Both the position numbers and the translations under genes were made by a program. The notes below the pieces were generated by a model. It ran no database searches, had not been told where the DNA came from, and saw only the letters and a program-made list of their open reading frames with translations. Below are positions 6,235 to 16,390 of a stretch of DNA of 35,105 nt, in pieces (position 1 is the first letter of the stretch; every line of letters begins with the position of its first letter). Origin of the DNA: Desulfobacterium sp. (GTDB lineage Bacteria; Desulfobacterota; Desulfobacteria; Desulfobacterales; Desulfobacteraceae); assembly GCA_016342325.1 (NCBI GenBank), contig JAEINR010000003.1, positions 1 to 35,105 on the forward strand. The letters are read 5' to 3'.

Positions 6235-6819
6235 TTACTGAATCTTAATCTCAAAGGTATTGAGTAATGTTAATGCTTCCGGTAAAGAGAATTCCGCTTT
6301 TCTTATATTGTTTTTAAGTGGGTCGATATTGTAGTTGATGCACTTTGTTAAATTTGCCTTAAATAGATTTGTGTTGTGGAAGAGTGATCCTGAAAAATCC
6401 GATTGGGACAGGTCGGTTTCGGACAGGTCTGTATTTACAAAATCACATTCGATTACAGCGGATTTGTATAGAAAGCATTTTTTAAGGCAGAGATCAGAAA
6501 AAATGCAGCTTTTTACATTGCACTCTTTTATGGAAAAATCGATCATGAGTGTGTCGCATTTTGTGAAATCGATGCCCATTATTTTGCAATTGGTAAACGT
6601 GACACCTCTGATTTGTGTCTTACGCATTTGGGATAAAGAAAAATTGCAATTAAAAAATGAGCAGTCCTCGAAAAGGCATGATTCAAAATTGGTATATGAA
6701 AAATTGCAATTTTGAAACTCGCAGTTGAAAAAAAGTTTGTTTGTAAGCTTCTGATCTTCTAAGCTTACATTTTTAAAAACGGCATCCTGGAATTCGTTTG
6801 AGTTGCCAAATGATTTCAT
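6235..6819 (-). CDS. Pentapeptide-repeat protein, cysteine-rich
   Basis: A 194-residue protein built almost entirely of five-residue repeats with Phe or Leu at the centre (CEFQN CNFSY TNFES CLFED CSFFN style; later CDFVN TDLSE TDLSQ SDFSG). These fold as a right-handed quadrilateral beta-helix. The C-terminal tail after the repeats (NYNIDPLKNNIRKAEFSLPE) resembles the capping helix region of Qnr-type proteins, which mimic DNA and protect gyrase. The function cannot be assigned from repeats alone. AGGAT precedes the ATG. The gene is markedly AT-richer than its neighbours and lies directly beside a tRNA gene used as an integration site, so it may have been acquired horizontally. Confidence 0.85.
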   Translation of the reverse strand: MKSFGNSNEFQDAVFKNVSLEDQKLTNKLFFNCEFQNCNFSYTNFESCLFEDCSFFNCNFSLSQMRKTQIRGVTFTNCKIMGIDFTKCDTLMIDFSIKECNVKSCIFSDLCLKKCFLYKSAVIECDFVNTDLSETDLSQSDFSGSLFHNTNLFKANLTKCINYNIDPLKNNIRKAEFSLPEALTLLNTFEIKIQ

Positions 6820-6892: not shown

Positions 6893-6970
6893 TTGGTAGC
6901 GATGCAGGGAATCGAACCCCGGACACCACGGATATGAGCCGTGTGCTCTAACCATCTGAGCTACATCGCC
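6893..6970. repeat. attL: 78-bp direct repeat
   Basis: Identical to 14491-14568 over 78 bases; the match breaks at 6971 (A versus G) and at 6892. The block spans a whole tRNA gene plus one base. Confidence 0.85.
6894..6970 (-). tRNA. tRNA-Met(CAT), left copy (attL)
   Basis: A 77-nt cloverleaf including an encoded CCA. The acceptor strands are GGCGATG and CATCGCT, the D arm is GCTCAGATGGTTAGAGC, the anticodon loop CTCATAT gives anticodon CAT, and the T loop is TTCGATT. The anticodon stem lacks the three G-C pairs of an initiator, so it is an elongator tRNA-Met or a tRNA-Ile2 whose C34 becomes lysidine. Its sequence is identical to the copy at 14492. It keeps the chromosomal terminator on its 3' side, while its promoter side is element DNA. 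Confidence 0.95.
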
Positions 6971-6996
6971 ATGCAATCTGTCTCAAAAACAGCGTC

Positions 6997-7025
6997 GTTA
7001 TAGTCGATCGGGCTTTCCGTGTCAA
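6997..7025 (-). promoter_or_regulatory. Element-borne promoter of the left tRNA-Met copy
   Basis: On the minus strand, TTGACA (7020-7025), 17 bases, TATAAC (6997-7002), ending 26 bases before the tRNA 5' end. It is near consensus. Because it lies inside the element, the element appears to carry its own promoter for the tRNA gene it rebuilds. Confidence 0.8.
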
Positions 7026-7084
7026 CTAAAAAATCATCTATGCTGCTTTTCGGCCCTTTTTCTGCGAGCGCTTCAACTTTTGCC

Positions 7085-7094
7085 GATTAGTACC
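7085..7094. repeat. Candidate left arm-type integrase site
   Basis: GATTAGTACC, identical to 14430-14439 at the other end; TTAGTACC recurs at 14419-14426. It lies 115 bases inside the left tRNA copy. Short repeats present at both ends of an element and near the integrase gene are the usual look of arm-binding sites. Confidence 0.5.
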
Positions 7095-7190
7095 CCGAGT
7101 CTGGACCCCATGTCAAGGCATGATTTCGGCACTCCTGCAAATTTGGCCTAAAAATGCGAGACCCTATATTATACGTTACCATGTACGTTT

Positions 7191-7201
7191 CCCCCCCCCC
7201 C
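7191..7201. repeat. Run of eleven C
   Basis: Eleven consecutive C residues in the 510-base non-coding left end of the element (6971-7529). Apart from the tRNA promoter, the arm site, this run, a 10-bp inverted repeat at 7358-7389 and the promoter at 7450, I see nothing else in that stretch. Confidence 0.7.
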
Positions 7202-7357
7202 ATGCCCATCGTTTAGCCTCCTACAGGTGATTGAAGGGGTCCCAGGCATCGTTCTTTTGTCCTTGGCATCAGTCTGCCGTGTTACCCTGCGGAGGATTCA
7301 ATGGGGATCTCCGTTGCCCTGGTCGACACCTTCTGTCCCCGGCAATTTACCGAATCA

Positions 7358-7389
7358 ACTTGCTAACTTTAACGTAATAGTTGGCGAGT
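7358..7389. repeat. Inverted repeat upstream of the short recombinase gene
   Basis: ACTTGCTAAC (7358-7367) can pair with GTTGGCGAGT (7380-7389) over ten positions, two of them G-U. A related ACTTGCTAAG recurs at 7467-7476 across the promoter -10 region. These may be binding sites of a regulator or recombinase. Confidence 0.4.
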
Positions 7390-7449
7390 GGTGAATCCTC
7401 TGTATTTCACTAATGCCAACGGTCTTCACTGATTTTCCCAATATTATTC

Positions 7450-7478
7450 TTGACTCCTCGATTTTCACTTGCTAAGTT
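7450..7478 (+). promoter_or_regulatory. Promoter of the short recombinase gene
   Basis: TTGACT (7450-7455), 17 bases, TAAGTT (7473-7478), 51 bases before the ATG at 7530. An ACTTGCTAAG repeat overlaps the -10 hexamer. Confidence 0.45.
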
Positions 7479-7529
7479 TGGGTGTTTATTTCAACAATAC
7501 TTAACGACTCTCAAGGAGGCCATCCCATC

Positions 7530-8123
7530 ATGAGCAACGGCAACGTGAACCACCCCAAGAAGGGCAGTCAGATAGCAGTGGAACCCATAAAGGCCATGAA
7601 GGATATCAAGGCAATCAAAAAGCTCCTCAGCGACAAGCCACGGGACCTGTGCCTGTTCACCCTGGGAATTAATACAAACCTCAGGGCAATCGACCTACTG
7701 AACATAAAGGTGGGGCTGGTGGCCTCCCTTGAGCCTGGGGACGAGTTTACGCTGAAGGAGCGGAAAACCTGCAAGGCGAGACGGATTACAATCAATAGGG
7801 CTGTCCATGAAACCATCCAGGGGCTATTCAAGGTTACAGCCTATGAATCCGGTGATTACCTTTTTCGGTCTCAGCGAGGAGCCGTGTTGACCGTTCCTTC
7901 ATTGTCCAGGCTGGTTAAAATGTGGTGCAAGATGATCCATCTCAAGGGCAATTATGCGAGCCACACGCTCCGTAAAACCTGGGGGTATCACCAACGAGTA
8001 TCCTTCAATGTCGGCATACCTGAGCTTATGGTGTGCTTCAATCATAGCAGCCAAAGGCAAACACTGGATTATCTTTGCATCCAGCCCGAAGAAATCAAAA
8101 ACGTTTATCTCAATGAACTGTAA
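7530..8123 (+). CDS. Short tyrosine recombinase (catalytic domain only)
   Basis: A 197-residue tyrosine-recombinase-family protein lacking the N-terminal core-binding and arm-binding domains of normal integrases. Catalytic-type residues are visible: Arg in INTNLRAIDLLNI (near residue 50), the box HTLRKTWGYHQ (near 145), His in FNHSSQRQ (near 172) and Tyr in TLDYL about eight residues later. The ATG at 7530 has AAGGAGG ten bases upstream, better than a start 48 bases earlier. It is a second recombinase besides the integrase at the other end. It could be a regulator of excision, a resolver of multimers or an invertase. Proteins of this small type are common in proteobacterial mobile elements, but their roles are mostly untested. 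Confidence 0.85.
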   Translation: MSNGNVNHPKKGSQIAVEPIKAMKDIKAIKKLLSDKPRDLCLFTLGINTNLRAIDLLNIKVGLVASLEPGDEFTLKERKTCKARRITINRAVHETIQGLFKVTAYESGDYLFRSQRGAVLTVPSLSRLVKMWCKMIHLKGNYASHTLRKTWGYHQRVSFNVGIPELMVCFNHSSQRQTLDYLCIQPEEIKNVYLNEL

Positions 8124-8334
8124 ATGGCCGGGAGGGGATGATTTGAATCCCTGTCTCCTTCTGTCCGCAAAAGCTACACTGTAGAATCCATTCTAACGGC
8201 CTTTCGGCTCCTGTCCTACATTGTGGCCTCCATTAAGTGAAACTCCTCTTAAAACGAGTGTTTCGGCCCGTGCTTCCTCACCTCCCATGAATCCGATTTA
8301 AGGGGGACCGTTTGCGTTCCTGCGAGTTATCCCC
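8124..8334. other. Non-coding gap with a tRNA-like inverted segment
   Basis: The 211 bases between the recombinase and the Rha gene have no convincing gene. On the minus strand, about 8125-8201 has the ends GGCCG...CGGCC followed by an A, a GGGAT/ATCCC stem with 7-base loop and a CTACA/TGTAG stem, vaguely like a decayed tRNA. The D arm and anticodon arm do not fit, so no RNA gene is called. Confidence 0.25.
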
Positions 8335-8752
8335 ATGGGCCACCAGCTTGTAACAGTCAGCGATGTCAACACCCCGGTAACCACCAGCTTGAAGATAGCG
8401 GAGACGTTCGGAAAACGACACGACAATGTGATGCGAAATATTGCGACCATCCTCCGGCAATCCAAGGGCCTTAAAGGAGGACGCCTCAATTTTGAGGAGT
8501 CTAACTATCTGAACAGACAAGAAAAATCCCAACCCATGTTCGAAATGGACCGTGACGCATTCATGCTGGTTGTCATGGGATTTACCGGGGAAACCGATGA
8601 TGCCATTTACAGGGAGTGGAGCGAATGCACAGGCAATTCATGTCCTAATATCCCCCCTGATACCCGAGATACAAGCCGAGCTTCTTAAGATCCAGGCAGA
8701 GGCCGAGGGGCTTATTCGAGGTGTTTTTTTGCCTAATAAAACAGAGAGTTAG
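8335..8752 (+). pseudogene. Rha-family phage regulatory protein, probably frameshifted
   Basis: The first 80 residues match the Rha family of phage regulators: TTSLKIAETFGKRHDNVMRNI, then a region ending FEMDRDAFMLVVMGFTGE. The open frame ends at 8688 (117 residues). From the C6 run at 8652-8657, the +1 frame continues with IPEIQAELLKIQAEAEGL to a stop at 8752, a coil-like tail that reads better than the last 15 residues of the original frame. One extra C would explain this. It could be a real inactivating mutation, slippage or a sequencing error. No good ribosome-binding site precedes the ATG. Rha proteins affect phage development; the exact role is unclear. Confidence 0.65.
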
Positions 8753-8810
8753 TGGAGGGGACAGTATATAGAGGAAAAGCAGCATTTTTCCATCACATCA
8801 TATACCAACG

Positions 8811-8854
8811 GGAAAGCCGCCAGGATCATGGGATTCGGCGGCTTTCCTTGTTTT
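8811..8854 (+). terminator. Strong intrinsic terminator after the Rha gene
   Basis: GGAAAGCCGCC (8811-8821) pairs perfectly with GGCGGCTTTCC (8837-8847) around a 15-base loop, followed by TTGTTTT. It lies 58 bases after the second-frame stop and 19 bases before the next gene, so it separates the two units or acts as a leader attenuator. Confidence 0.75.
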
Positions 8855-8872
8855 AGGGATAGGAGACCAAAG

Positions 8873-9142
8873 ATGTTTAGCAACAATTACCGGGAGATTG
8901 ACCCGTCAGTCCCTGATGGACTTATTGAACGGATGGTCGACTATGGGTTCGTGGTAGCACATCCCAAGAAGCCACGGTGGATAAAGGCGACTCCGAAGCT
9001 GGAGACGTCTGTAATCAAAGGAATAGGGAGAGAAGTACGTAAATCGAGAATAGACACCATAGCCATTTATCAGGGCTATCCGGTGATGAACTATGTAAGG
9101 CGAGACCCATCGTGCTGCATAATGTGTTGGACGAGTCCATGA
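8873..9142 (+). CDS. Small winged-helix-like protein upstream of the polymerase-like gene
   Basis: An 89-residue protein of unknown function. Residues 14-46 (DGLIERMVDYGFVVAHP, then a stretch ending WIKATPKLE) closely echo a segment of the next gene (VDQMEAHGYLEQRKG ... MATPKLMEAM), which looks like the second helix and wing of a winged helix. AGGAG at 8861 and ATG at 8873 make a sound start. The last residues (SCCIMCWTSP) overlap the start of the next gene by 31 bases and look unnatural. It may therefore be a truncated N-terminal copy, or the 5' part of one gene broken by a frameshift. I do not recognise a wider family. Confidence 0.5.
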   Translation: MFSNNYREIDPSVPDGLIERMVDYGFVVAHPKKPRWIKATPKLETSVIKGIGREVRKSRIDTIAIYQGYPVMNYVRRDPSCCIMCWTSP

Positions 9143-10248
9143 AGGTGGCTGTCTTGGAAGCACTATGCGATGAGATGGGCATGAAGCCAGGGCGCAACGG
9201 GGTTAATCTAAGGAATCTGGAGGTGCTCTGCGCCAATCTGAGAGATGGAAGGGTAAGGTCTATGAGCCGCCGCAAAAAATATTGGTCGGGCATTCCGAGC
9301 GAATACAACCCGGTGGGAGTCAGTTATAAAATGGTTCCGTGCGTGGATCAGATGGAGGCACATGGATATCTCGAACAGCGCAAAGGCTTCCAAGATCCCA
9401 GGACGGGTAAGGGTTTCAACACGAGGTTGATGGCGACACCTAAGCTCATGGAGGCCATGGAGGGGGTCACGGTATGCAAACACCCCGATGCTCCACTGTT
9501 GATCCTCAAGGATGCCGAAAAAAGAATGGTCAGCTACCAGGAGACAGGAAACACCAGGGCCATGAAGGCGCAACTAAGGAGATATAATAAACTCCTTGCT
9601 GATACCGTTGTGGAGCTTGGAGGTGCCGTTCTCGGGCCGGGTGATAAATTTGTGTATCGGGTATTCAATCAAGGCAAATGGTCCCTTGGAGGCCGATTCT
9701 ATGGCGCTGCATGGCACACCTGTGAAAAGGAGCTGAGAGACACCATCCTCATCAACGGTGAACCCACGGTTGAACCGGATTATAGCAGTTTACATCCTTG
9801 TATAATGTACGCCCTGGCCAGATTGAAGATGCCTGGTGGGGATATGTACGACCTCCCCGGCATCGAAGACCGAAAATATGGAAAGATTGCGCTGCTGATA
9901 ATGGTCAATGCTGAGAACCGGAAGGCCGCAACAGGCGCATTTAACGAGAAATTCAAGGCTGATTCCGACAGGCCCAAGGCAGCGGAAGTGTTCGCCAAGA
10001 TTCTCGATAAACACCCACCGGAGATCCAGAACATGTTCTTTAGTGGAATAGGTCTGAAGCTCCAGGGGCTGGACAGTAGGCTTGCCGACACCATCATTGA
10101 TAAATTAACCAGGGAGGACATTCCGAGTCTATCGGTGCATGATTCATTCCGAGTGCAGGAGAAACACGGAGGACGGCTGATAGAGCTTATGAATTTGACG
10201 TTCCGGGATCAATGGGGAGACCAAGTCACACCGCCCAAAGTCCACTGA
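9112..10248 (+). CDS. Compact protein with motifs like the palm of single-subunit polymerases
   Basis: A 378-residue protein not assignable to a named family by eye. Residues 68-116 look like a winged helix. The C-terminal half has, in order: GGRFYG (193-198); EPDYSSLHPCIMYA (221-234), like motif A with candidate Asp223; R254-x3-K258-x7-N266, like motif B of family A and T7-like polymerases (R-x3-K-x7-Y); and SVHDSF (341-346), like motif C, where T7 RNA polymerase has HDSFG and family A DNA polymerases have VHDE. Motifs A to C span only about 120 residues, so the palm would be very small. The start is GTG at 9112 with AAGG eight bases before it; ATG at 9139 is possible. I recall similar uncharacterised proteins in proteobacterial prophages. 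Polymerase or primase activity is inference. Confidence 0.7.
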   Translation: MLHNVLDESMKVAVLEALCDEMGMKPGRNGVNLRNLEVLCANLRDGRVRSMSRRKKYWSGIPSEYNPVGVSYKMVPCVDQMEAHGYLEQRKGFQDPRTGKGFNTRLMATPKLMEAMEGVTVCKHPDAPLLILKDAEKRMVSYQETGNTRAMKAQLRRYNKLLADTVVELGGAVLGPGDKFVYRVFNQGKWSLGGRFYGAAWHTCEKELRDTILINGEPTVEPDYSSLHPCIMYALARLKMPGGDMYDLPGIEDRKYGKIALLIMVNAENRKAATGAFNEKFKADSDRPKAAEVFAKILDKHPPEIQNMFFSGIGLKLQGLDSRLADTIIDKLTREDIPSLSVHDSFRVQEKHGGRLIELMNLTFRDQWGDQVTPPKVH

Positions 10249-10478
10249 AGCCCGAAACAGATAGTAAGAGAGAGATAAGATAGAGAGAAATACCGTAGGA
10301 CAGACAGAAGATAACAGAAAGTAATAATCTTAAGAGACCATTAGTTACCATTACTGATACCTGAAACGATCAAAAACGCCCAAGACTCCCGTCAATAAGG
10401 CCTTTCAGGAAATGCCAAAATCCATTTTTCATCCAAACATTTAATCAAGTGGGGCCATTGGGGCACCCATATCCCGAG
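10249..10478. other. Non-coding region with a purine-rich tract
   Basis: Between the polymerase-like gene and the phased repeats lies a non-coding stretch. Bases 10255-10325 are strongly purine-rich, with repeated AGATAG/GATAAGATAGAGAG-type words. No gene or clear terminator is seen. A purine-rich tract beside phased repeats would suit an origin region, but nothing proves it. Confidence 0.4.
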
Positions 10479-10536
10479 GTAACGTTGTAACAATCACCTC
10501 ATTACAACGCAACACTACTGATATTACAACGCAACA
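10479..10536. repeat. 22-bp-phased repeats upstream of the ribbon-helix-helix gene
   Basis: ATTACAACGCAACA occurs at 10501-10514 and again at 10523-10536, exactly 22 bases apart. A diverged copy, GTAACGTTGTAACA, sits at 10479-10492 in the same phase. The core TTAC-AAC-GYAA is a short palindrome. The last copy touches the ribosome-binding site. They are candidate operators of the next gene product, or iterons. Confidence 0.7.
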
Positions 10537-10547
10537 AGGAAAATATA

Positions 10548-10883
10548 ATGAATTCAACACAAAGAGTAGCAGCGCACCGGGAACGACAGAAGGCAGAAGG
10601 TGTCAAGACCGTGTCTATTACCATGACAACCGAGACTCATCAGGCCCTGAAGGAGGCCAGGGCGACCACCAGCAAGACTTATCAGACAATAGTCGAGGAG
10701 GCGTTGCGGTCCCCACTCATCAGCGAGGATCACATGGAATTTCTTCATGCAAGGGCGGACCAGGCCGGAGAACCCGTCAAGGATGTCCTGAGCGGGATCA
10801 TCCAGGGAGCCTGGGATGAACTCAAGGGACGTTTGGAAGATCCGCTGGAGCCTAAGGACGAGTTCGACCCAAGCAACTTTTGA
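10548..10883 (+). CDS. Ribbon-helix-helix (CopG-like) DNA-binding protein
   Basis: A 111-residue protein. Residues 17-52 fit a ribbon-helix-helix fold: a strand VKTVSITM, then helix THQALKEARA, a turn TTSK and helix TYQTIVEEAL. The basic N-terminus (RVAAHRERQK) is typical of plasmid and mobile-element CopG-like proteins. The acidic C-terminal half (70-111) may mediate dimer or partner contacts. AAGGA precedes the ATG at the right distance. Phased repeats lie on both sides of the gene, the upstream set reaching the ribosome-binding site, so autoregulation is likely. A role in copy control or partition of an excised circle is possible but inferred. Confidence 0.8.
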   Translation: MNSTQRVAAHRERQKAEGVKTVSITMTTETHQALKEARATTSKTYQTIVEEALRSPLISEDHMEFLHARADQAGEPVKDVLSGIIQGAWDELKGRLEDPLEPKDEFDPSNF

Positions 10884-10919
10884 GTAACAACGTAACATTA
10901 CTATGATTACAACGTAACA
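10884..10919. repeat. 22-bp-phased repeats downstream of the ribbon-helix-helix gene
   Basis: GTAACAACGTAACA (10884-10897) and ATTACAACGTAACA (10906-10919) are spaced 22 bases apart, like the upstream set, and share the ACAACGYAACA core with it. The first copy begins immediately after the stop codon. The following 130 bases to 11049 hold no gene I can support. Confidence 0.7.
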
Positions 10920-11049
10920 CAATGAATAGGACGGAGAGGACCATGAGGGACTGCACATCCCACAAGGTTTTCTCCTCCACCCTTTTTGTTTCTATGTACC
11001 AGTACGGGTCTGGTTGGTGTCTGTTTGTATCTGTCTTTTTCGTTGCTAT

Positions 11050-11763
11050 TCAGGAACGTGATGGTTCCCCCTTGACAGCCTTCTCCGGGGACGGTGTATG
11101 CTCAACCTGTTTAGGATCTTGGGTGGTCCCATCAGTGGCATCCCCAGCGATTTGGCGAGAATCTTTCAATTCCTTGAGAATCTGGGCTATATCGTTGAGG
11201 GCCTGGATGGTTTTGTCTGCCTGCTTGTCATAGGTGGCCTGAGAGGCCAGGAGAGATTTATCAATGGCATTCGAGATATCATTCAGCGCCTGGAGGGTAA
11301 TTAGATTTTTTTGGTGCTCATAGGCGGCCTGGGTTGTCTGGACGGAGTACTTGATGGAGGCAATTTGTTCTGGATTGATTGTCACAGGGGTCTGGAGTTG
11401 CTTATATCCGATACCGATGGAAACGAGTAGGGTTAAAAAAGATATCCCCACGGCAGCGAAAGCGGTACAAATTGCAATCTTGGACGCTTTACGGGCTTCT
11501 TGGAGAGATCGATGTGCAACCAAAAGGGAATGGTATTCACCCTTCATTACATGTGCTTGGCTGTATTTTTTAGCCTTGGGGTTGATAAGAACAAAGGCTT
11601 CTTTTATCCATGACTGAAGGAAATCCCAATGGAAAGCGTGATTGCCTTCAGTAGCGATCCCTCTTTTGCGTGCCCAGCCTTCAAACCCGTCATGCCCAAT
11701 CGCCATTAGCCCTGCTTCTTCGCCATATTCCAGAAGCTCAATAAACTTGATTGGCTTATCCAT
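11050..11763 (-). CDS. Membrane protein with repeated coiled-coil segment, unknown function
   Basis: A 237-residue protein of no family I recognise. Residues 1-90 are a soluble, partly helical domain containing a Trp-rich stretch (FEGWARKRG, FHWDFLQSWIKEAF). Residues 94-118 form one transmembrane helix (AICTAFAAVGISFLTLLVSI). After it come two related segments, QAAYEHQKNLITLQALNDIS and SQATYDKQADKTIQALNDIA, about 30 residues apart, which look like a duplicated coiled-coil unit. The tail is hydrophilic (HTPSPEKAVKGEPSRS). The ATG at 11763 has GAGGAG upstream and is preferred to an earlier start without one. It is encoded against the surrounding element genes. It could be an exclusion or anchoring protein; this is a guess from topology only. 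Confidence 0.7.
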   Translation of the reverse strand: MDKPIKFIELLEYGEEAGLMAIGHDGFEGWARKRGIATEGNHAFHWDFLQSWIKEAFVLINPKAKKYSQAHVMKGEYHSLLVAHRSLQEARKASKIAICTAFAAVGISFLTLLVSIGIGYKQLQTPVTINPEQIASIKYSVQTTQAAYEHQKNLITLQALNDISNAIDKSLLASQATYDKQADKTIQALNDIAQILKELKDSRQIAGDATDGTTQDPKQVEHTPSPEKAVKGEPSRS

Positions 11764-11960
11764 AAATGTCTCCTCTCGTATTGAATGCAAGGTTAACCCC
11801 GTATGGGTCTGTACAACCATATGGCGCATTAATCAATCTCCACACTGCAATTATGGTCCGGGTGGTATCCTCCATTGAGGCCAGATTTGTGAGACCTCAT
11901 GTCTTTACATGGGATCCGTTACGGCCTTCCCCCGTGATGGCATCGTCCACCTTGAGACCT

Positions 11961-12038
11961 TTACAGTTCCGGCATAACCCACTTGGAACCCGTCAGATGA
12001 CCTTGGACTACGGAGTAGACCAGGTGCTTATTACCCAT
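11961..12038 (-). pseudogene. Decayed C-terminal fragment of a second integrase
   Basis: The last 25 codons of an integrase-like frame. It ends GHLTGSKWVMPEL, against GHLRGSKWVRPGL at the end of the intact integrase at 12691; over the last 22 residues, 13 are identical by eye. Nothing upstream continues the match. The rest of 11764-12149 contains a perfect 12-bp palindrome, TTCCATATGGAA, at 12091-12102 and otherwise nothing recognisable. Confidence 0.7.
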
Positions 12039-12149
12039 GGTGGTTGACAAGCTGAGAATAATGCGGTTTAAAGTGGAGGGTATCAAATGCTTCCATATGG
12101 AAACACCCCCTCCTATAGTTTTTAATATTTATAATACGGAGGAGTAGTT

Positions 12150-12623
12150 ATGAAAACGATTGAAATTACTGACAAACAGTATGAACGTCTTGTTTCGCAT
12201 GTCAATGACCATGAATTACCCGACTCGGTTACCATCGAAAGAATCCTAAATTCTTATGAGGAACATAAGGGTGGTAATGGCCCGTCTGTTGTGTTAAAAA
12301 CCGAAGATCCTCAAGTTGTGATTCCCTCTGCATGTAAGCAGAATGAACGTTTTCAGCCTACAATGAGAAGAATAATGCAGCCCGTTAAGTTTGTTTTTTT
12401 CCCTGACAATGAAGAGACCTTCAAACAGAGTTTGCTCAAGAAAAGAAAGGCTTATATTCGAATTTATAAAGCCGATGGTAGTGTGGTGGACGAAATGTGG
12501 AATGCTTTAAGAATCACTAAAGCATCTAAGATAAAATCGTGTCTGCGCACTAAGTTTGGGAAATGGGGAATAACAGGTATTGTTAAAGTTGTGGCTTCAA
12601 CAAATCCAGACGATTTATCATAG
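12150..12623 (+). CDS. Small protein with SeqA-N-like N-terminus, unknown function
   Basis: A 157-residue protein. Residues 1-36 (MKTIEITDKQYERLVSH, then SVTIERIL) resemble the N-terminal dimerisation domain of SeqA (which begins MKTIEVDDELY and has SH at the same place). The C-terminal part is unlike SeqA's GATC-binding domain. It reads as a compact beta-rich domain (KKRKAYIRIYKADGSVVDEMW, then a basic stretch and GITGIVKVV) seen in various uncharacterised bacterial proteins. GGAGGAG lies six bases before the ATG, an excellent start. The gene is AT-richer than the rest of the element. It converges on the integrase gene. A DNA-binding role in replication or gene control is only inferred. Confidence 0.7.
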   Translation: MKTIEITDKQYERLVSHVNDHELPDSVTIERILNSYEEHKGGNGPSVVLKTEDPQVVIPSACKQNERFQPTMRRIMQPVKFVFFPDNEETFKQSLLKKRKAYIRIYKADGSVVDEMWNALRITKASKIKSCLRTKFGKWGITGIVKVVASTNPDDLS

Positions 12624-12634
12624 AATCTGATTGA

Positions 12635-12678
12635 GGATCTGCGAGGTCTTTTATCGTTCAGTATGGCCTCGCAGATCC
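12635..12678. terminator. Hairpin between convergent genes, probable bidirectional terminator
   Basis: GGATCTGCGAGG (12635-12646) pairs perfectly with CCTCGCAGATCC (12667-12678), extended by two more pairs, with a loop of about 16 bases. It sits between the stop codons of the SeqA-N-like gene and the integrase. T-runs are poor on both sides, so termination efficiency is uncertain. Confidence 0.55.
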
Positions 12679-12690
12679 CCATGACGTTCT

Positions 12691-14394
12691 TTACAATCCA
12701 GGCCGAACCCACTTAGACCCCCTCAGATGTCCCAGGTCCACCCCGTAATCAAGCTTCAGAACGGCCTCATCATACAGCACCCTGACCGAATAACGCTTCC
12801 CGTATCGGCCCATGGTCTCCCCCTGCAAAGCATGGCCCGTCAGTTCATCGATCAGTGTCTCATTGATGAGTTGCTGTTTCAGGTTGTCGGTCAAGGTGTG
12901 CCGAAAGGAATGGAAGACCAGCAGCTTATCATCGAGGCCGCATTTTTTCTTGAACGTGCCAAACCACTTGGATGCCTGATGGGCGTAGCTGCCGTTCCGG
13001 TATAGCAGTTCCGGGAACAGGCGTGTCTCCCCCTTTGCCTTGATGTGGTCGACGTAACCCTTGAAATTAAGCTCGTCTGTGACAAACGGGTGTAAGGGTA
13101 TGGCTCTGTGTGATGCGGCGTTTTTGAGGCTTATAGTGCGGTCTGAGGGGTCTTCCTGCAAGACAAGGCTCAGGATACCGTCAATGGTCTGGATATCCTT
13201 GATTCTTAATTGGCAAAGCTCGTTGATCCGTGCGCCCGTGTAGAGGCCCAAGATAGGTAACCAGAACTGAAAAGGTTTCTTATGGGTGTCCTCAAGATAT
13301 CCGGGGGTCTGGAACATTTTGGTCAGATTGTCCGGGCTGAAGGCGTGGCGCTGTTCGTCTGGCCTCTTCTGCTTATTGTTTTTTATCTTCATGCCGTCAG
13401 CATAGTTGGTGGACATGTAACCTTGTCCCATGCACCATTTGAAAAATGCTCCCAGGGTTATAATATACCCGTTGATCGATGATGTGCTAAGGGTGTCTAT
13501 GCCCTGATCCTTGGCAATGCTGATAACCTCATCAATACTCTTGCCGTTGAAGACTTTCTTCTTGTTCATGCCGGACGGGATGTCCTGAAGAGTTTTCTTG
13601 AGATCCCGGATGGTGCCGTGGTCAATGGAATCAATCGGGGTGTCGTCTCCCATGATTTGCAACAGGATGGTGAATTGGCCTGTATATTTCTTGATTGACT
13701 TTGGCTTCCAAAGGTCGGCACCTGTGCTTTCATCGACCCATTCATCGACCAGGGCTTTGATTGTGGGGCCTTTGGGAGGCTCAGGAGCAAGGGGCATGGT
13801 GGTGGCCACGGTAGGCGGCATGGCGGCGGCAACAGGTGGTTGTTCGTCTAAGTAGTCTCCCCGCTCTCTCTTCTGCTTGATGTCATAGATATGGGCCTCA
13901 GCCTTGAAAAATTCATGACACAGCTTTTTATATTCGAACGATTCCTTGTCGGCCTTTATGCCTTTGGCTGTGAGAAGGTTGTCGACAGACTCCTCCACAA
14001 ACGCAATGTTTTTGGTGGCACGATGTTGCTGCATAAGTACTCTCGTCATGCCAAGGATTTTTACGTGGTCCTTGTGGTATTCAGGATCAAAGGGGGTATC
14101 GTCCATAATGCGTGCTTTTTCGTCCTCTTCCAGGGCATTCCGGTGGTACTGATTGGTTATATCATTTATCTGTTCAGCCTGTAACTGCGCCATGTTTTCG
14201 CCTTTACGTAGGGTCCTAATTAACATTTGCACCTGTCCTGCTATCATCCTTGACCTGGATTTTGCAAGACCTAATTCACGGGTGCGGAGGGAGAATTTGA
14301 TTTCCGATTTGCCCACGAGGGGCTTGATATCACGGGGGATTTGGTATCGGAAGTAGTGGCCGGACGGCTTGGAAATTACGTAGGTGGCTGCCAA
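12691..14394 (-). CDS. int: Tyrosine integrase of the tRNA-Met element
   Basis: A 567-residue phage-type site-specific recombinase. Residues 1-60 match the N-terminal domain found in many long tRNA integrases (PLVGKSEIKFSLRTRELGLAKSR). A core-binding domain lies at about 200-335. The catalytic domain shows Arg in TGARINELCQLR, the box HSFRH, His in LTGHA and the nucleophile Tyr in RVLYDEAV near the C-terminus. The start is TTG at 14392-14394 with AAGGAG 11 bases upstream; no better start is seen. It lies 97 bases from the right tRNA copy and reads away from it, so it may be transcribed from the tRNA promoter. It most likely carries out integration into, and with a helper excision from, the tRNA gene. 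Confidence 0.95.
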   Translation of the reverse strand: MAATYVISKPSGHYFRYQIPRDIKPLVGKSEIKFSLRTRELGLAKSRSRMIAGQVQMLIRTLRKGENMAQLQAEQINDITNQYHRNALEEDEKARIMDDTPFDPEYHKDHVKILGMTRVLMQQHRATKNIAFVEESVDNLLTAKGIKADKESFEYKKLCHEFFKAEAHIYDIKQKRERGDYLDEQPPVAAAMPPTVATTMPLAPEPPKGPTIKALVDEWVDESTGADLWKPKSIKKYTGQFTILLQIMGDDTPIDSIDHGTIRDLKKTLQDIPSGMNKKKVFNGKSIDEVISIAKDQGIDTLSTSSINGYIITLGAFFKWCMGQGYMSTNYADGMKIKNNKQKRPDEQRHAFSPDNLTKMFQTPGYLEDTHKKPFQFWLPILGLYTGARINELCQLRIKDIQTIDGILSLVLQEDPSDRTISLKNAASHRAIPLHPFVTDELNFKGYVDHIKAKGETRLFPELLYRNGSYAHQASKWFGTFKKKCGLDDKLLVFHSFRHTLTDNLKQQLINETLIDELTGHALQGETMGRYGKRYSVRVLYDEAVLKLDYGVDLGHLRGSKWVRPGL

Positions 14395-14418
14395 AATAAA
14401 AAAGCTCCTTCATCTGTG

Positions 14419-14439
14419 TTAGTACCATTGATTAGTACC
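14419..14439. repeat. Candidate right arm-type integrase sites
   Basis: TTAGTACC at 14419-14426 and GATTAGTACC at 14430-14439, thirteen bases apart, between the integrase start and the right tRNA copy. The longer form is identical to 7085-7094 at the left end. Confidence 0.5.
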
Positions 14440-14490
14440 GCGCAGAAAAAAAGAGCCTTAATTGCATCTAAGTATCTGAAATAATTAGAT

Positions 14491-14568
14491 TTGGTAGCGA
14501 TGCAGGGAATCGAACCCCGGACACCACGGATATGAGCCGTGTGCTCTAACCATCTGAGCTACATCGCC
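14491..14568. repeat. attR: 78-bp direct repeat
   Basis: Identical to 6893-6970. Together they define the element ends. Confidence 0.85.
14492..14568 (-). tRNA. tRNA-Met(CAT), right copy (attR)
   Basis: Identical in all 77 bases to the tRNA at 6894, with anticodon CAT and encoded CCA. Its promoter side is chromosomal, while its 3' side is element DNA leading to the integrase. Downstream there is only a run of seven or more T near 14445 without a good stem, so readthrough into the integrase gene is plausible. Confidence 0.95.
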
Positions 14569-14620: not shown

Positions 14621-16390
14621 TCAATTTTCCTGATTTTTTCTTTCAAAGCCGGCCACATTTACCGTGAAATTCTCAAGATTGTCGGGCAGATCCGAGAACA
14701 CGATCATGAACGGGACCGCTCGGCCCGGTTCGATGTTGATGTTGGATTGATTGTTTCCCGTTATCTTTGCAAACTGGGTGTCCATGGTTGTCATTTCAAG
14801 GGTTTTTAGCTGATCCTCGGGAATGAGGTTGCCACAGTATACGGTTTTCTCCCTTGCCTTGACCTTCTCCTTGGTGATGAGGGTTCCCTTGATTTTGATG
14901 TGGCTGCAGAGCGCCTCCGAGGTGTTTACCACCCTGCCGGTGATGACAAAGAGGGTGCCAGCGGATGTGTTTGTTACGAATCGGCCAGTGACGCTCTTTT
15001 TCTCAGGGGCGAGCCGTATGGGCGGGGCTGGAGGGGGGGGAGGGGCCAGGTAGTCGCTCAAAAAGGGAACCTTGATGGTTGAGAGGTAGGGGATCTCAAT
15101 TCCATACATGATGCAGGCGCTGTAGCCGCCAAGGGCCATAATGGCCAGCAATAGAATGACCAGCACGGGTTTTCCGATCTTTATCGGCTTCTTAAAGTCC
15201 TCGTCAATGCCGTAATCAAGGGGAGGTGGTGTTTCAATCTCTACCTTCTCTGTGGGGGCTTGCTCTTCGGTAAGGGGGGCTGTGTCTTGCTTTTCCCCTG
15301 GGGCCTCAAGTTCGACGGTTTCTTCCGTGTCTGGCTCCGGAACATCGGTGGCTCTGGGACGATCGGTTTCTGGTTCCGGGAGTTCTTCCTGCCCTTGAAA
15401 CGCTTCCTGTTCTTCAAGCATCTCGTCAAATTCGGCGAGATCGAGTTCTTCGTCCGGTTCTGCAGTCTCGGCCATTGGCTCGATGACGTCCGGTTCCTGG
15501 GGGTCCAGGTCCAGGTTCAGATCCAGATCCACGTCGAGTTCGAGGTTAAACTCTGAATCATCTGCCGCGGTTTTATCCGCACCAGGCGTTTCCAGTGTTG
15601 AGAGGTCTAACTCGTCGTCTTCCAATTCAAACTCGAGTTCTTCATATAATTCAAGGTCTTCATCCTGTTCAGGGTCTGCCAGGCCGGCGTCGTCGATGGG
15701 TTCGAAATCGTCCCCAAGGTCGAGTTCAAGGTCTGGTTCTGTGTCGGTTGGTGCCTCCTCAAGGTCGAGCTCGAGATCGTCCCCAAGGTCGAATTCAAGG
15801 TCGAGTTCATCCGGTTCCTGTGCTTCCTCAAGATCGAGTTCAAGGTCTGGTTCTGTGTCGGTTGGCGTCTCCTCAAGGTCGAGTTCGAGATCGTCCCCAA
15901 GGTCGAATTCAAGGTCGAGTTCATCCGGTTCCTGTGCTTCCTTAAGATCGAGTTCAAGGCCTGGTTCTGTGTCGGTTGGTGTCTCCCCAAGGTCGAGTTC
16001 GAGATCGTCCCCAAGGTCGAATTCAAAGTCGAGTCCATCCGGTTCCTGCGCTTCCTCAAGATCGAGTTCAAGGTCGGGTTCCGTGGCGGTTGGTTTCTCC
16101 CCAAGGTCGAGTTCACCCGGTTCGAGCGCGTCGTCAAAGTCATCATCGAGCCGGAATTCTTCTAATTCCTCGGTTTCGTCAAGACCAAGGTCTTGATCAA
16201 GCTGGAGATCATCCGGCTCCATGGCTTCCTTGCTGTCATCACCAAGATCAAGGGAGGGGATGGAAGGGGCAAGGGGGTAGGCTATAAACACGTGTTTGCA
16301 CTGGCTGCAGCGAACCTTGGACCCCTCTTTATTCAGAAGGGATTCGTCAAGATTGAACCGTATTGAGCACTTTTCACAGGTGATAACCAT
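14621..16390 (-). CDS. Zinc-ribbon / DUF3426 membrane protein with long acidic repeats
   Basis: A 589-residue protein. Residues 1-38 are an MJ0042-type zinc ribbon with C5-x2-C8 and C28-x2-C31. Residues about 45-330 are extremely acidic, dominated by ELDL, DLGDD and TEPD words, and include 38-residue tandem repeats. A single transmembrane helix (VLVILLLAIMALGGYSACIM) lies near residue 410. After a proline-rich linker, the last 140 residues form a DUF3426-type beta domain that would be outside the cytoplasmic membrane. Such proteins are common in Desulfobacterota and related groups; their function is unknown, though cell-envelope or protein-handling roles are suspected. It is the first chromosomal gene beyond the element and follows hpt by 17 bases, so it may be in the hpt operon. 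Confidence 0.85.
   Translation of the reverse strand: MVITCEKCSIRFNLDESLLNKEGSKVRCSQCKHVFIAYPLAPSIPSLDLGDDSKEAMEPDDLQLDQDLGLDETEELEEFRLDDDFDDALEPGELDLGEKPTATEPDLELDLEEAQEPDGLDFEFDLGDDLELDLGETPTDTEPGLELDLKEAQEPDELDLEFDLGDDLELDLEETPTDTEPDLELDLEEAQEPDELDLEFDLGDDLELDLEEAPTDTEPDLELDLGDDFEPIDDAGLADPEQDEDLELYEELEFELEDDELDLSTLETPGADKTAADDSEFNLELDVDLDLNLDLDPQEPDVIEPMAETAEPDEELDLAEFDEMLEEQEAFQGQEELPEPETDRPRATDVPEPDTEETVELEAPGEKQDTAPLTEEQAPTEKVEIETPPPLDYGIDEDFKKPIKIGKPVLVILLLAIMALGGYSACIMYGIEIPYLSTIKVPFLSDYLAPPPPPAPPIRLAPEKKSVTGRFVTNTSAGTLFVITGRVVNTSEALCSHIKIKGTLITKEKVKAREKTVYCGNLIPEDQLKTLEMTTMDTQFAKITGNNQSNINIEPGRAVPFMIVFSDLPDNLENFTVNVAGFERKNQEN
15708..16120. repeat. 114-bp tandem repeats inside the zinc-ribbon gene
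   Basis: The word GGTTCYGTG-GTCGGTTGG-type start recurs at 15735, 15849, 15963 and 16077, spaced exactly 114 bases (38 codons). About three and a half copies are present with few differences, so recent expansion is likely. Confidence 0.85.

What the first reader, a model, noticed from the sequence alone, without database searches (positions are those of the whole stretch)
9112..10248. Compact polymerase-like protein in a small integrative element
The 378-residue protein shows, in the right order, an EPDYSSLHP motif (like motif A), R-x3-K-x7-N (like motif B, R-x3-K-x7-Y, of family A DNA and T7-like RNA polymerases) and SVHDSF (like motif C; T7 RNA polymerase has HDSFG). A GGRFYG motif precedes motif A. 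Motifs A to C span only about 120 residues, much shorter than in known members, and a winged helix replaces the thumb/exonuclease side. If real, it is a minimal single-subunit nucleotidyl transferase, perhaps the element's own primase, replicase or transcriptase.
Basis: partly seen in the sequence, partly recalled or inferred. Interest (0 to 1): 0.82.

Follow-up and report, generated by a model that had tools for sequence, protein, structure and literature searches.

The report
Compact polymerase in a mobile element
A small piece of mobile DNA in a bacterial genome carries a very compact DNA-polymerase-like enzyme; it belongs to a widespread but almost unstudied family already glimpsed in transposons and phages, and this unusually short member would be a convenient one to test.

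Summary
The 378-aa protein at 9112-10248 (+) is a family-A (DNA polymerase I / T7-RNA-polymerase-like) palm enzyme. A 61-row alignment gives a confident model (pLDDT 94.8) whose best solved matches are DNA polymerase I structures, with mitochondrial RNA polymerase behind. In 136 aligned rows the two catalytic aspartates, the R-x3-K of motif B and the hairpin arginine never vary, apart from two cut rows. A probably winged-helix N-terminal domain stands where polymerase I has thumb and exonuclease. The protein lies in a ~7.5-kb element between two tRNA-Met genes that are 80 bp apart, without the element, in a same-genus genome.

It is not a new kind. Homologs include the published phage 'divPolA2' proteins (2024); anatomy and setting fit 'TV-Pol' (2008), predicted primase-polymerases of mobile elements, among which CcPol has been tested. 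Additions here: phage divPolA2 looks like one branch of a larger bacterial mobile-element family; motif A carries usually His where polymerase I has Glu and T7-like RNA polymerases (recalled) have Gly. I favour a DNA-making primase-polymerase of the element; activity is untested.

The parts
9112..10248 (+). divPolA2/TV-Pol-like polymerase gene, 378 aa (start codon uncertain)
   Evidence: (PHROG 4756, E 2e-52)
9193..9435 (+). probable winged-helix part of the N-terminal domain (residues 28-108)
   Evidence: DSSP of the models; Foldseek of residues 1-168 lists several winged-helix proteins (TFE-alpha, NadR, VanR, PadR, TFIIE, RTP) at E 0.05-0.8, none at 0.001 or better: weak
9688..9705 (+). GGRFYG, T/DxxGR-type hairpin with R195
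   Evidence: R195 kept in 135 of 135 rows with the column
9772..9798 (+). motif A EPDYSSLHP: D223 (metal ligand), H228 at the sugar-gate position
   Evidence: D223 135 of 135; position 228 is H in 124 of 135, never G
9871..9909 (+). motif B R254-x3-K258-x7-N266 (fingers O helix)
   Evidence: R254, K258 136 of 136; N266 128 of 136; aligned to the PolA O helix
10132..10149 (+). motif C SVHDSF: H343, D344 (metal ligand)
   Evidence: D344 135 of 135, H343 129 of 135
6971..14491 (.). integrated element, about 7.5 kb, between two tRNA-Met genes
   Evidence: absent from the syntenic place in same-genus genome G576 (L135), where the two tRNA-Met genes are 80 bp apart and the main flanking matches are 81-90% identical
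14492..14568 (-). tRNA-Met (CAT), copy on the integrase side
6894..6970 (-). tRNA-Met (CAT), copy at the other end
12691..14394 (-). tyrosine integrase with DUF6538 N-terminal domain, next to the tRNA
   Evidence: Pfam DUF6538 9e-12, Phage_integrase 3e-11; PHROG integrase
7482..8123 (+). second, short tyrosine recombinase (213 aa)
   Evidence: Phage_integrase 3e-11, PHROG 216
8335..8688 (+). Rha-family phage regulator, short form
   Evidence: Phage_pRha 5e-22; PHROG Rha-like
10548..10883 (+). small ribbon-helix-helix-like regulator
   Evidence: PHROG 536 'transcriptional regulator' 2e-5; weak Pfam
11050..11829 (-). 259-aa ORF of unknown function
   Evidence: no Pfam family over its cut-off; best PHROG E 0.003, unknown function
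12150..12623 (+). 157-aa ORF of unknown function
   Evidence: no Pfam family over its cut-off; best PHROG E 0.011, unknown function

Best explanation
It is an A-family polymerase cut down to palm and short fingers, with a probable winged-helix DNA-binding domain in place of thumb and exonuclease: the divPolA2 / TV-Pol kind. Shown here by computation: the fold, the motifs and their invariance, the homology to published divPolA2 proteins, and the seat in an element beside tRNA genes. Inferred: D223 and D344 bind the two metal ions; R254 and K258 handle the incoming nucleotide; R195 contacts the template; the residue at position 228 fills the place of the PolA gate glutamate and favours dNTPs; the winged helix holds element DNA or the nascent duplex; and the enzyme starts and/or extends DNA on the element's single strands when it is excised or transferred, i.e. 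it is the element's own primase-polymerase, working with host helicase and SSB. The identity is about 0.93 likely, the DNA-making primase-polymerase role about 0.5.
For: Model pLDDT 94.8, pTM 0.90; DNA polymerase I is the best PDB match; against viral models the first 11 rows (E 7e-26 to 8e-19, TM-score by query length up to 0.83) stand apart and include the divPolA2 of Rheinheimera phage Barba31A. Motifs fixed in 136 rows. Profile alignment to PolA in correct register; score above all 60 shuffles for each of the two alignments tested. Position 228: H 124, N 2, Q 2, Y 2, A, W, E, F, L 1 each of 135, never G; the host PolA has E there. Element with integrase, absent in a sister genome. Integrase or resolvase homologs in 30 of 80 relatives' loci (25 of 51 loci of 12 kb or more), and none in ~93 kb of control sequence that was not matched for kind of locus. 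CcPol, counted in TV-Pol, polymerises DNA, and with its partner MP primes DNA de novo; both activities need the two aspartates (PMC7581432, passages).
Against: I found no measured activity for divPolA2 or a close relative (papers). None of the seven element ORFs scanned is a recognisable helicase, initiator or OB-fold partner, and CcPol alone could not prime without MP (PMC7581432, passages). In 4 of 5 phage records tested a separate PF00476 polymerase exists, so there this enzyme is not the sole polymerase. The gate argument compares aligned positions only; 3 of 135 rows have a small residue there (N 2, A 1). The profile missed the likely TV-Pol of phage Ma-LMM01 in a whole-record search. By sequence profile the best PDB hits are Taq polymerase at E 2.4-3 with A2 and none with A5 (one unrelated chain, E 2); hhalign probabilities to PolA are 35% and 6%.
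Confidence: 0.55

Rival explanations
1. It is a single-subunit RNA polymerase that transcribes the element or phage genes, as proposed as one option for divPolA2 in PMC11348598.
For: Mitochondrial RNA polymerase appears among PDB matches (3spa E 1.5e-3, 7pzp and 7pzr 1.8e-3), and RNA polymerases among BFVD matches. Motif C is HDS here; T7 RNA polymerase also has HDS (recalled). In phages it is an extra enzyme beside another polymerase in 4 of 5 records.
Against: DNA polymerase I matches better. The sugar-gate position is H in 124 of 135 rows and never the Gly recalled for T7-like RNA polymerases; K+4 is L in 41 of 61 and never the Tyr recalled for RNA polymerases. No N-terminal promoter-binding domain is recognised; 378 aa against about 880 (recalled).
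Confidence: 0.13
2. It is a repair, gap-filling or lesion-bypass DNA polymerase carried as an accessory gene, not used to replicate the element.
For: Phages carry it beside a regular polymerase (4 of 5 records), in two places in one of five records, and in varying neighbourhoods. No nuclease domain and no PolA-type thumb suggest low processivity. One bacterial neighbour (L034) has a below-cut-off match to uracil-DNA glycosylases (E 0.004). PMC11348598 names repair as an option (section read).
Against: No consistent link to repair genes among 142 nearest bacterial neighbours as far as listed: the leading families are integrases, DUF6538, DNA methylases and resolvases (25 of 89 families shown).
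Confidence: 0.2
3. It is a defence or conflict polymerase, making DNA that harms or blocks a competing phage or plasmid.
For: Some relatives lie by restriction-modification genes: N6_N4 methylase 4, type III methylation subunit 3 of 142 neighbours.
Against: No PADLOC model matches the protein up to E 10; phages carry it themselves; methylases are common cargo of genomic islands (general knowledge).
Confidence: 0.07
4. A catalytically dead palm fold used as a scaffold or regulator.
For: Palm proteins that have lost catalytic aspartates are reported in similar neighbourhoods (PMC10061031, first part of Results read: 5 RRM-only examples).
Against: The catalytic positions are invariant across very divergent members.
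Confidence: 0.04

Closest known systems
divPolA2 (Yutin et al. 2024, Virol J 21:200, PMC11348598; example AUR84708 of Vibrio phage 1.063.O, and barbaviruses)
   Same: Homologous by sequence (BLASTP E 2e-7 with AUR84708 in a single comparison; 115 Rheinheimera phage records among 230 tblastn hits); palm with catalytic residues, no PolA thumb, no exonuclease, own N-terminal domain; accompanies a regular polymerase in phages.
   Different: Encoded by a small bacterial integrative element, not a phage; about 50 residues shorter than AUR84708 (378 vs 430 aa); AUR84708 keeps PolA-like E at the gate and FDE in motif C, this protein has H and HDS.
TV-Pol (Iyer, Abhiman, Aravind 2008, Biol Direct 3:39, PMC2579912)
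   Same: Minimal A-family core with hairpin arginine, two aspartates, fingers with conserved Asp and RxxxK; extra N-terminal domain in a subset; mobile elements with integrase or resolvase; many Alphaproteobacteria, some Desulfobacterota; an element with a Bro-N-type gene is described (the nearest relative L033 has one downstream; the window has Rha).
   Different: No D5 helicase recognised here; the N-terminal domain reads as winged helix, the paper predicts an all-helical fold; the bi-helical thumb is not evident; direct homology to the 2008 sequences could not be settled.
CcPol-MP primase of SCC elements (Bebel et al. 2020, PMC7581432; Rice 2023, PMC10061031)
   Same: A-family catalytic core used by mobile elements; two catalytic Asp; counted in TV-Pol by the 2008 paper.
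   Different: CcPol has an SSB-like partner and a helicase in its operon; none recognised here. CcPol's aspartates are 155 residues apart (D169, D324), here 121.
DNA polymerase I (PF00476)
   Same: Palm fold and motif order.
   Different: Not matched by the Pfam model; shorter fingers, no exonuclease; gate residue H instead of E.

Membership tests
A-family (PolA/T7-like) polymerase fold | RRM-type palm with two metal-binding Asp in motifs A and C | tested here: met
   Foldseek to DNA pol I E 9.8e-5; D223 135/135, D344 135/135
A-family (PolA/T7-like) polymerase fold | R-x3-K on the fingers O helix and hairpin Arg (T/DxxGR) | tested here: met
   R254, K258 136/136; R195 135/135; in register with PolA
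A-family (PolA/T7-like) polymerase fold | detected by the PF00476 model | tested here: not met
   no Pfam match up to E 10; the PF00476 place listed in each of 4 matching phage records is elsewhere than the divPolA2 gene
divPolA2 | sequence homology to AUR84708 and barbavirus proteins | tested here: met
   BLASTP 2e-7; tblastn 115 Rheinheimera records, Barba31A E 3e-5; BFVD hit Barba31A E 4e-22
divPolA2 | no PolA-type thumb or exonuclease, unrelated N-terminal domain | tested here: met
   model of residues 1-168: no PolA among the 50 rows listed; weak winged-helix matches
divPolA2 | carried beside a regular polymerase in phages | tested here: met
   PF00476 gene elsewhere in 4 of 5 phage records; none found in the fifth, Barba31A, whose group has PolB per PMC11348598
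TV-Pol | hairpin Arg, two Asp, fingers with conserved Asp and RxxxK | tested here: met
   position 244 is D in 126 and E in 5 of 135
TV-Pol | bi-helical anti-parallel thumb | tested here: inconclusive
   only one long helix (146-163) directly precedes the hairpin in the DSSP string; coordinates were not inspected
TV-Pol | mobile-element neighbourhood with integrase/resolvase | tested here: met
   window integrase; 30 of 80 relatives' loci
TV-Pol | link to D5-type helicase (in a subset of the family) | tested here: not met
   no helicase among the seven element ORFs scanned; defines only part of TV-Pol
TV-Pol | direct sequence relation to the 2008 members | tested here: inconclusive
   their alignment is in a supplement that could not be read; the profile missed phage Ma-LMM01, whose likely TV-Pol aligns in register at motif A and the motif B Lys but weakly (E 0.048 and 0.035)
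T7-like RNA polymerase | small residue (Gly) at the motif A gate and Tyr in motif B (recalled) | tested here: not met
   gate never G in 135; K+4 L in 41 of 61, never Y
CcPol-MP primase | OB-fold partner gene and helicase next to the polymerase | tested here: not met
   no such family among the seven element ORFs scanned; an OB fold without sequence similarity cannot be excluded
primase-polymerase | de novo primer synthesis | not testable with these tools
   needs purified protein

The most novel reading that the evidence does not exclude
This family is a catalytic variant of A-family polymerases: a mostly histidine gate in motif A (D-x4-H), K-x7-N in the O helix, and a winged helix serving as thumb and origin binder, which lets a single ~380-residue chain start and extend DNA without an OB-fold partner. 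The phage divPolA2 proteins would be a later offshoot of this bacterial mobile-element enzyme.
Probability: 0.25. Interest if true: 0.75.

Novelty: new member of a known kind. Interest (0 to 1): 0.42.

Why it matters
Whether TV-Pol and divPolA2 enzymes make DNA or RNA, and whether they prime, has been open since 2008; in the papers found here only CcPol-MP has been tested. This member is short, predicted with high confidence and free of extra recognised domains, so it could be expressed and assayed directly. Linking phage divPolA2 to a large bacterial mobile-element family widens the set to which results would apply, and a histidine gate, if it works, would be an unusual solution to sugar selection in this superfamily.

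Tried and rejected
Rejected: ORF 8828-9142 as a second, stand-alone copy of the winged-helix domain (it has an ATPKL stretch like the polymerase): it does not appear among the rows shown of the N-terminal profile search, all of which are shuffles of it, and BLASTP to the polymerase gives only seven aligned residues, E 1.2. Rejected: the two tRNA-Met copies as proof of att duplication: a same-genus genome without the element also has two tandem copies, so the repeat alone proves nothing; absence of the element there does. Not supported: an element-borne promoter in front of the tRNA-Met copy (TTGACA...TATAAC seen by eye): the scan finds none at its threshold and spacing.

Led nowhere: Pfam, NCBIfam and PADLOC for the protein; PDB by sequence (one unrelated hit, E 0.4); first IMG/VR scan with the single protein (none); profile A5 against PDB (one unrelated hit, E 2); with A2 the only hits were Taq polymerase at E 2.4-3. 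Pfam on the 19 members of A2 gave 13 families, none of them a polymerase and each in one member. The first shuffle control ran hhalign with an unsuited option and was repeated. A search for Bro-N relatives at the 80 loci found only the query's own locus, and Rha none, so the Bro-N/Rha link rests on the window, L033 and the 2008 paper. All phage and plasmid counts are from the named collections only.

Full report
OBSERVATION. The ORF 9112-10248 (+) encodes 378 aa. The start is unsettled (ribosome sites judged by eye). Pfam, NCBIfam and PADLOC have no match up to E 10; PHROGs gives one family of unknown function, phrog_4756, E 2e-52.

FAMILY. tblastn finds 230 phage records (115 Rheinheimera, 86 Vibrio including ICP1, 14 Aeromonas, others; best identity under 60% in all) and 3 plasmids. 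The PHROG model matches 6 of 297 genomes of the phylum, the window's own included, and 0 of 14 control genomes; the protein matches 23 of 291 genomes of the order, its own included. A pattern scan of one genome per species gave 226 pattern matches, 209 of them relatives, of which the best 80 were kept; by title most are Alphaproteobacteria, with Desulfobacterota, Beta- and Gammaproteobacteria, Bacteroidota, Chloroflexota and Neomarinimicrobiota, several of these being metagenome bins. IMG/VR gave 26 relatives among 51 pattern matches.

CONSERVATION. Alignment A5 holds 61 rows chosen by hand for diversity from the 98 loci with a profile match. A broader alignment of 136 rows was made: the window; 96 of 97 genome loci, the missing one being the window's own copy, which I left out; 26 of 26 IMG/VR loci; 13 of 13 phage and plasmid loci. 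L022 and L033 are probably one protein counted twice. R195, R209 and D223 are kept in 135 of 135, R254 and K258 in 136 of 136, D344 in 135 of 135; the missing cells are rows L160 and L099, which lack those columns. H343 is H in 129, Y in 4, F in 2. Position 228 is H in 124 of 135, otherwise N 2, Q 2, Y 2, A, W, E, F or L 1 each, never G.

STRUCTURE. AlphaFold2 on A5: pLDDT 94.8, pTM 0.90. Foldseek against the PDB: 20 matches at E 0.001 or better, led by Taq and Bacillus DNA polymerase I; the 50 rows shown are A-family DNA polymerases (one of them polymerase theta) and three mitochondrial RNA polymerases. TM-scores are low (0.21-0.42 by query length), as a shared core in larger enzymes would give. 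Against viral models the first 11 rows (E 7e-26 to 8e-19; three have names: Aeromonas phages 4L372D and 2L372X and Rheinheimera phage Barba31A) stand apart from the next (8e-8); TM-score by query length up to 0.83. Profile-profile alignment with the PolA of 11 genomes of the same order puts GGR on TGR, D223 on the D of DYSQIELR and R254/K258 on the O-helix R/K (with A5 the alignment stops after motif A). Scores 38.4 (A2) and 29.9 (A5) stand against best shuffles of 24.6 and 21.4, 60 shuffles each. The hhalign probabilities are low (35% and 6%): sequence alone would not prove it; the fold does.

N-TERMINAL DOMAIN. Residues 1-168 modelled alone: pLDDT 93.0. Foldseek gives no match at E 0.001; several of the leading rows are winged-helix proteins (TFE-alpha, NadR, VanR, PadR, TFIIE, replication terminator protein; classes recalled), E 0.05 to 0.8, with unrelated folds mixed in. 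So 'winged helix' is likely, not proven. PMC11348598 (section read) reported no detectable similarity for this domain of divPolA2.

SETTING. The element lies between identical tRNA-Met genes 6894-6970 and 14492-14568. In same-genus genome G576 the main flanking matches are 81-90% identical, the two tRNA-Met genes lie 80 bp apart and there is no element. Genes: DUF6538 integrase, a second short recombinase, a Rha-type regulator, the polymerase, an RHH-like regulator, two longer unknown ORFs and a small one at 8828-9142; no helicase, SSB or initiator was recognised. Around relatives, 142 neighbours (the nearest ORF of 110-900 aa on each side, within four ORFs) gave Phage_integrase 8, DUF6538 6, N6_N4 methylase 4, resolvase 3, type III methylation subunit 3 (25 of 89 families listed; ORFs called by a crude picker, and L085 dropped because its gene was not recovered). 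The window integrase or a relative's resolvase has homologs in 30 of 80 loci, 25 of 51 loci of 12 kb or more. The nearest relative has a Bro-N gene downstream.

TREE. In a 75-row tree (74 different) the window protein pairs with Desulfobotulus (100/88). Nine of ten phage proteins form one branch within the bacterial spread, with weak support (90/45); ICP1 falls outside on a very long branch, and the program warns of long branches meeting. This suggests, without proving, that phage divPolA2 is an offshoot of a bacterial mobile-element family.

FUNCTION. Shown: fold, motifs, family, element. Inferred: catalysis, dNTP use, priming. For DNA: the gate position is mostly His and K+4 is not Tyr (RNA polymerase residues recalled); DNA polymerase I matches best. 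For priming: TV-Pols were predicted primase-polymerases from context (PMC2579912, main text read), and CcPol with MP primes DNA de novo (PMC7581432, passages). Against: no partner recognised here, and phages carry the enzyme beside a PF00476 polymerase in 4 of 5 records; ICP1 is said to have a Pol-I type polymerase and a helicase-primase (PMC7145576, passages).

LITERATURE. 'TV-Pol' occurs in 8 held papers, 6 of them on polymerases, one being a preprint of another (listing); 'divPolA2' in 2, a paper and its preprint (listing). In the one section of PMC11348598 that I read in full, no link between divPolA2 and TV-Pol or bacterial elements is made; the rest was seen only in passages. PMC10061031: abstract and outline, first part of Results, and passages. 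Absence from these searches is not proof that nobody has linked them.

VERDICT.

Noticed in passing
L046:4080-14106: In a Desulfovibrio assembly the polymerase relative (7893-9242) lies directly upstream of a run that looks like Cas9, Cas1 and Cas2 (by recalled start motifs and sizes), with a homolog of the window integrase and a resolvase-like ORF on the other side.
   Followed up: no
L085:7671-15212: Two members of the family stand on either side of one DUF6538 integrase, facing each other.
   Followed up: no
L005:6609-6929; L015:26886-27200; L020:1048-1368: Genes annotated as acyl-carrier-protein or acyl-carrier-protein-like lie near the divPolA2 gene in three vibriophages.
   Followed up: no
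L015:25472-26761 (AUR84708): The published divPolA2 example keeps PolA-like residues (E at the gate, Y at K+8, FDE in motif C), unlike nearly all other members: a possible intermediate; it sits on a long branch.
   Followed up: partly
L113:22746-24266: Cyanophage Ma-LMM01 ORF beside a transposase has D-x4-H, K-x7-N-G and an HDG, likely the TV-Pol cited in 2008; it lacks the R of R-x3-K.
   Followed up: partly
window 6235-6819 (-) and 14621-16390 (-): The element's chromosomal neighbours are a pentapeptide-repeat protein and a protein with long acidic repeats; the repeat region aligns to the sister genome in several overlapping pieces.
   Followed up: no
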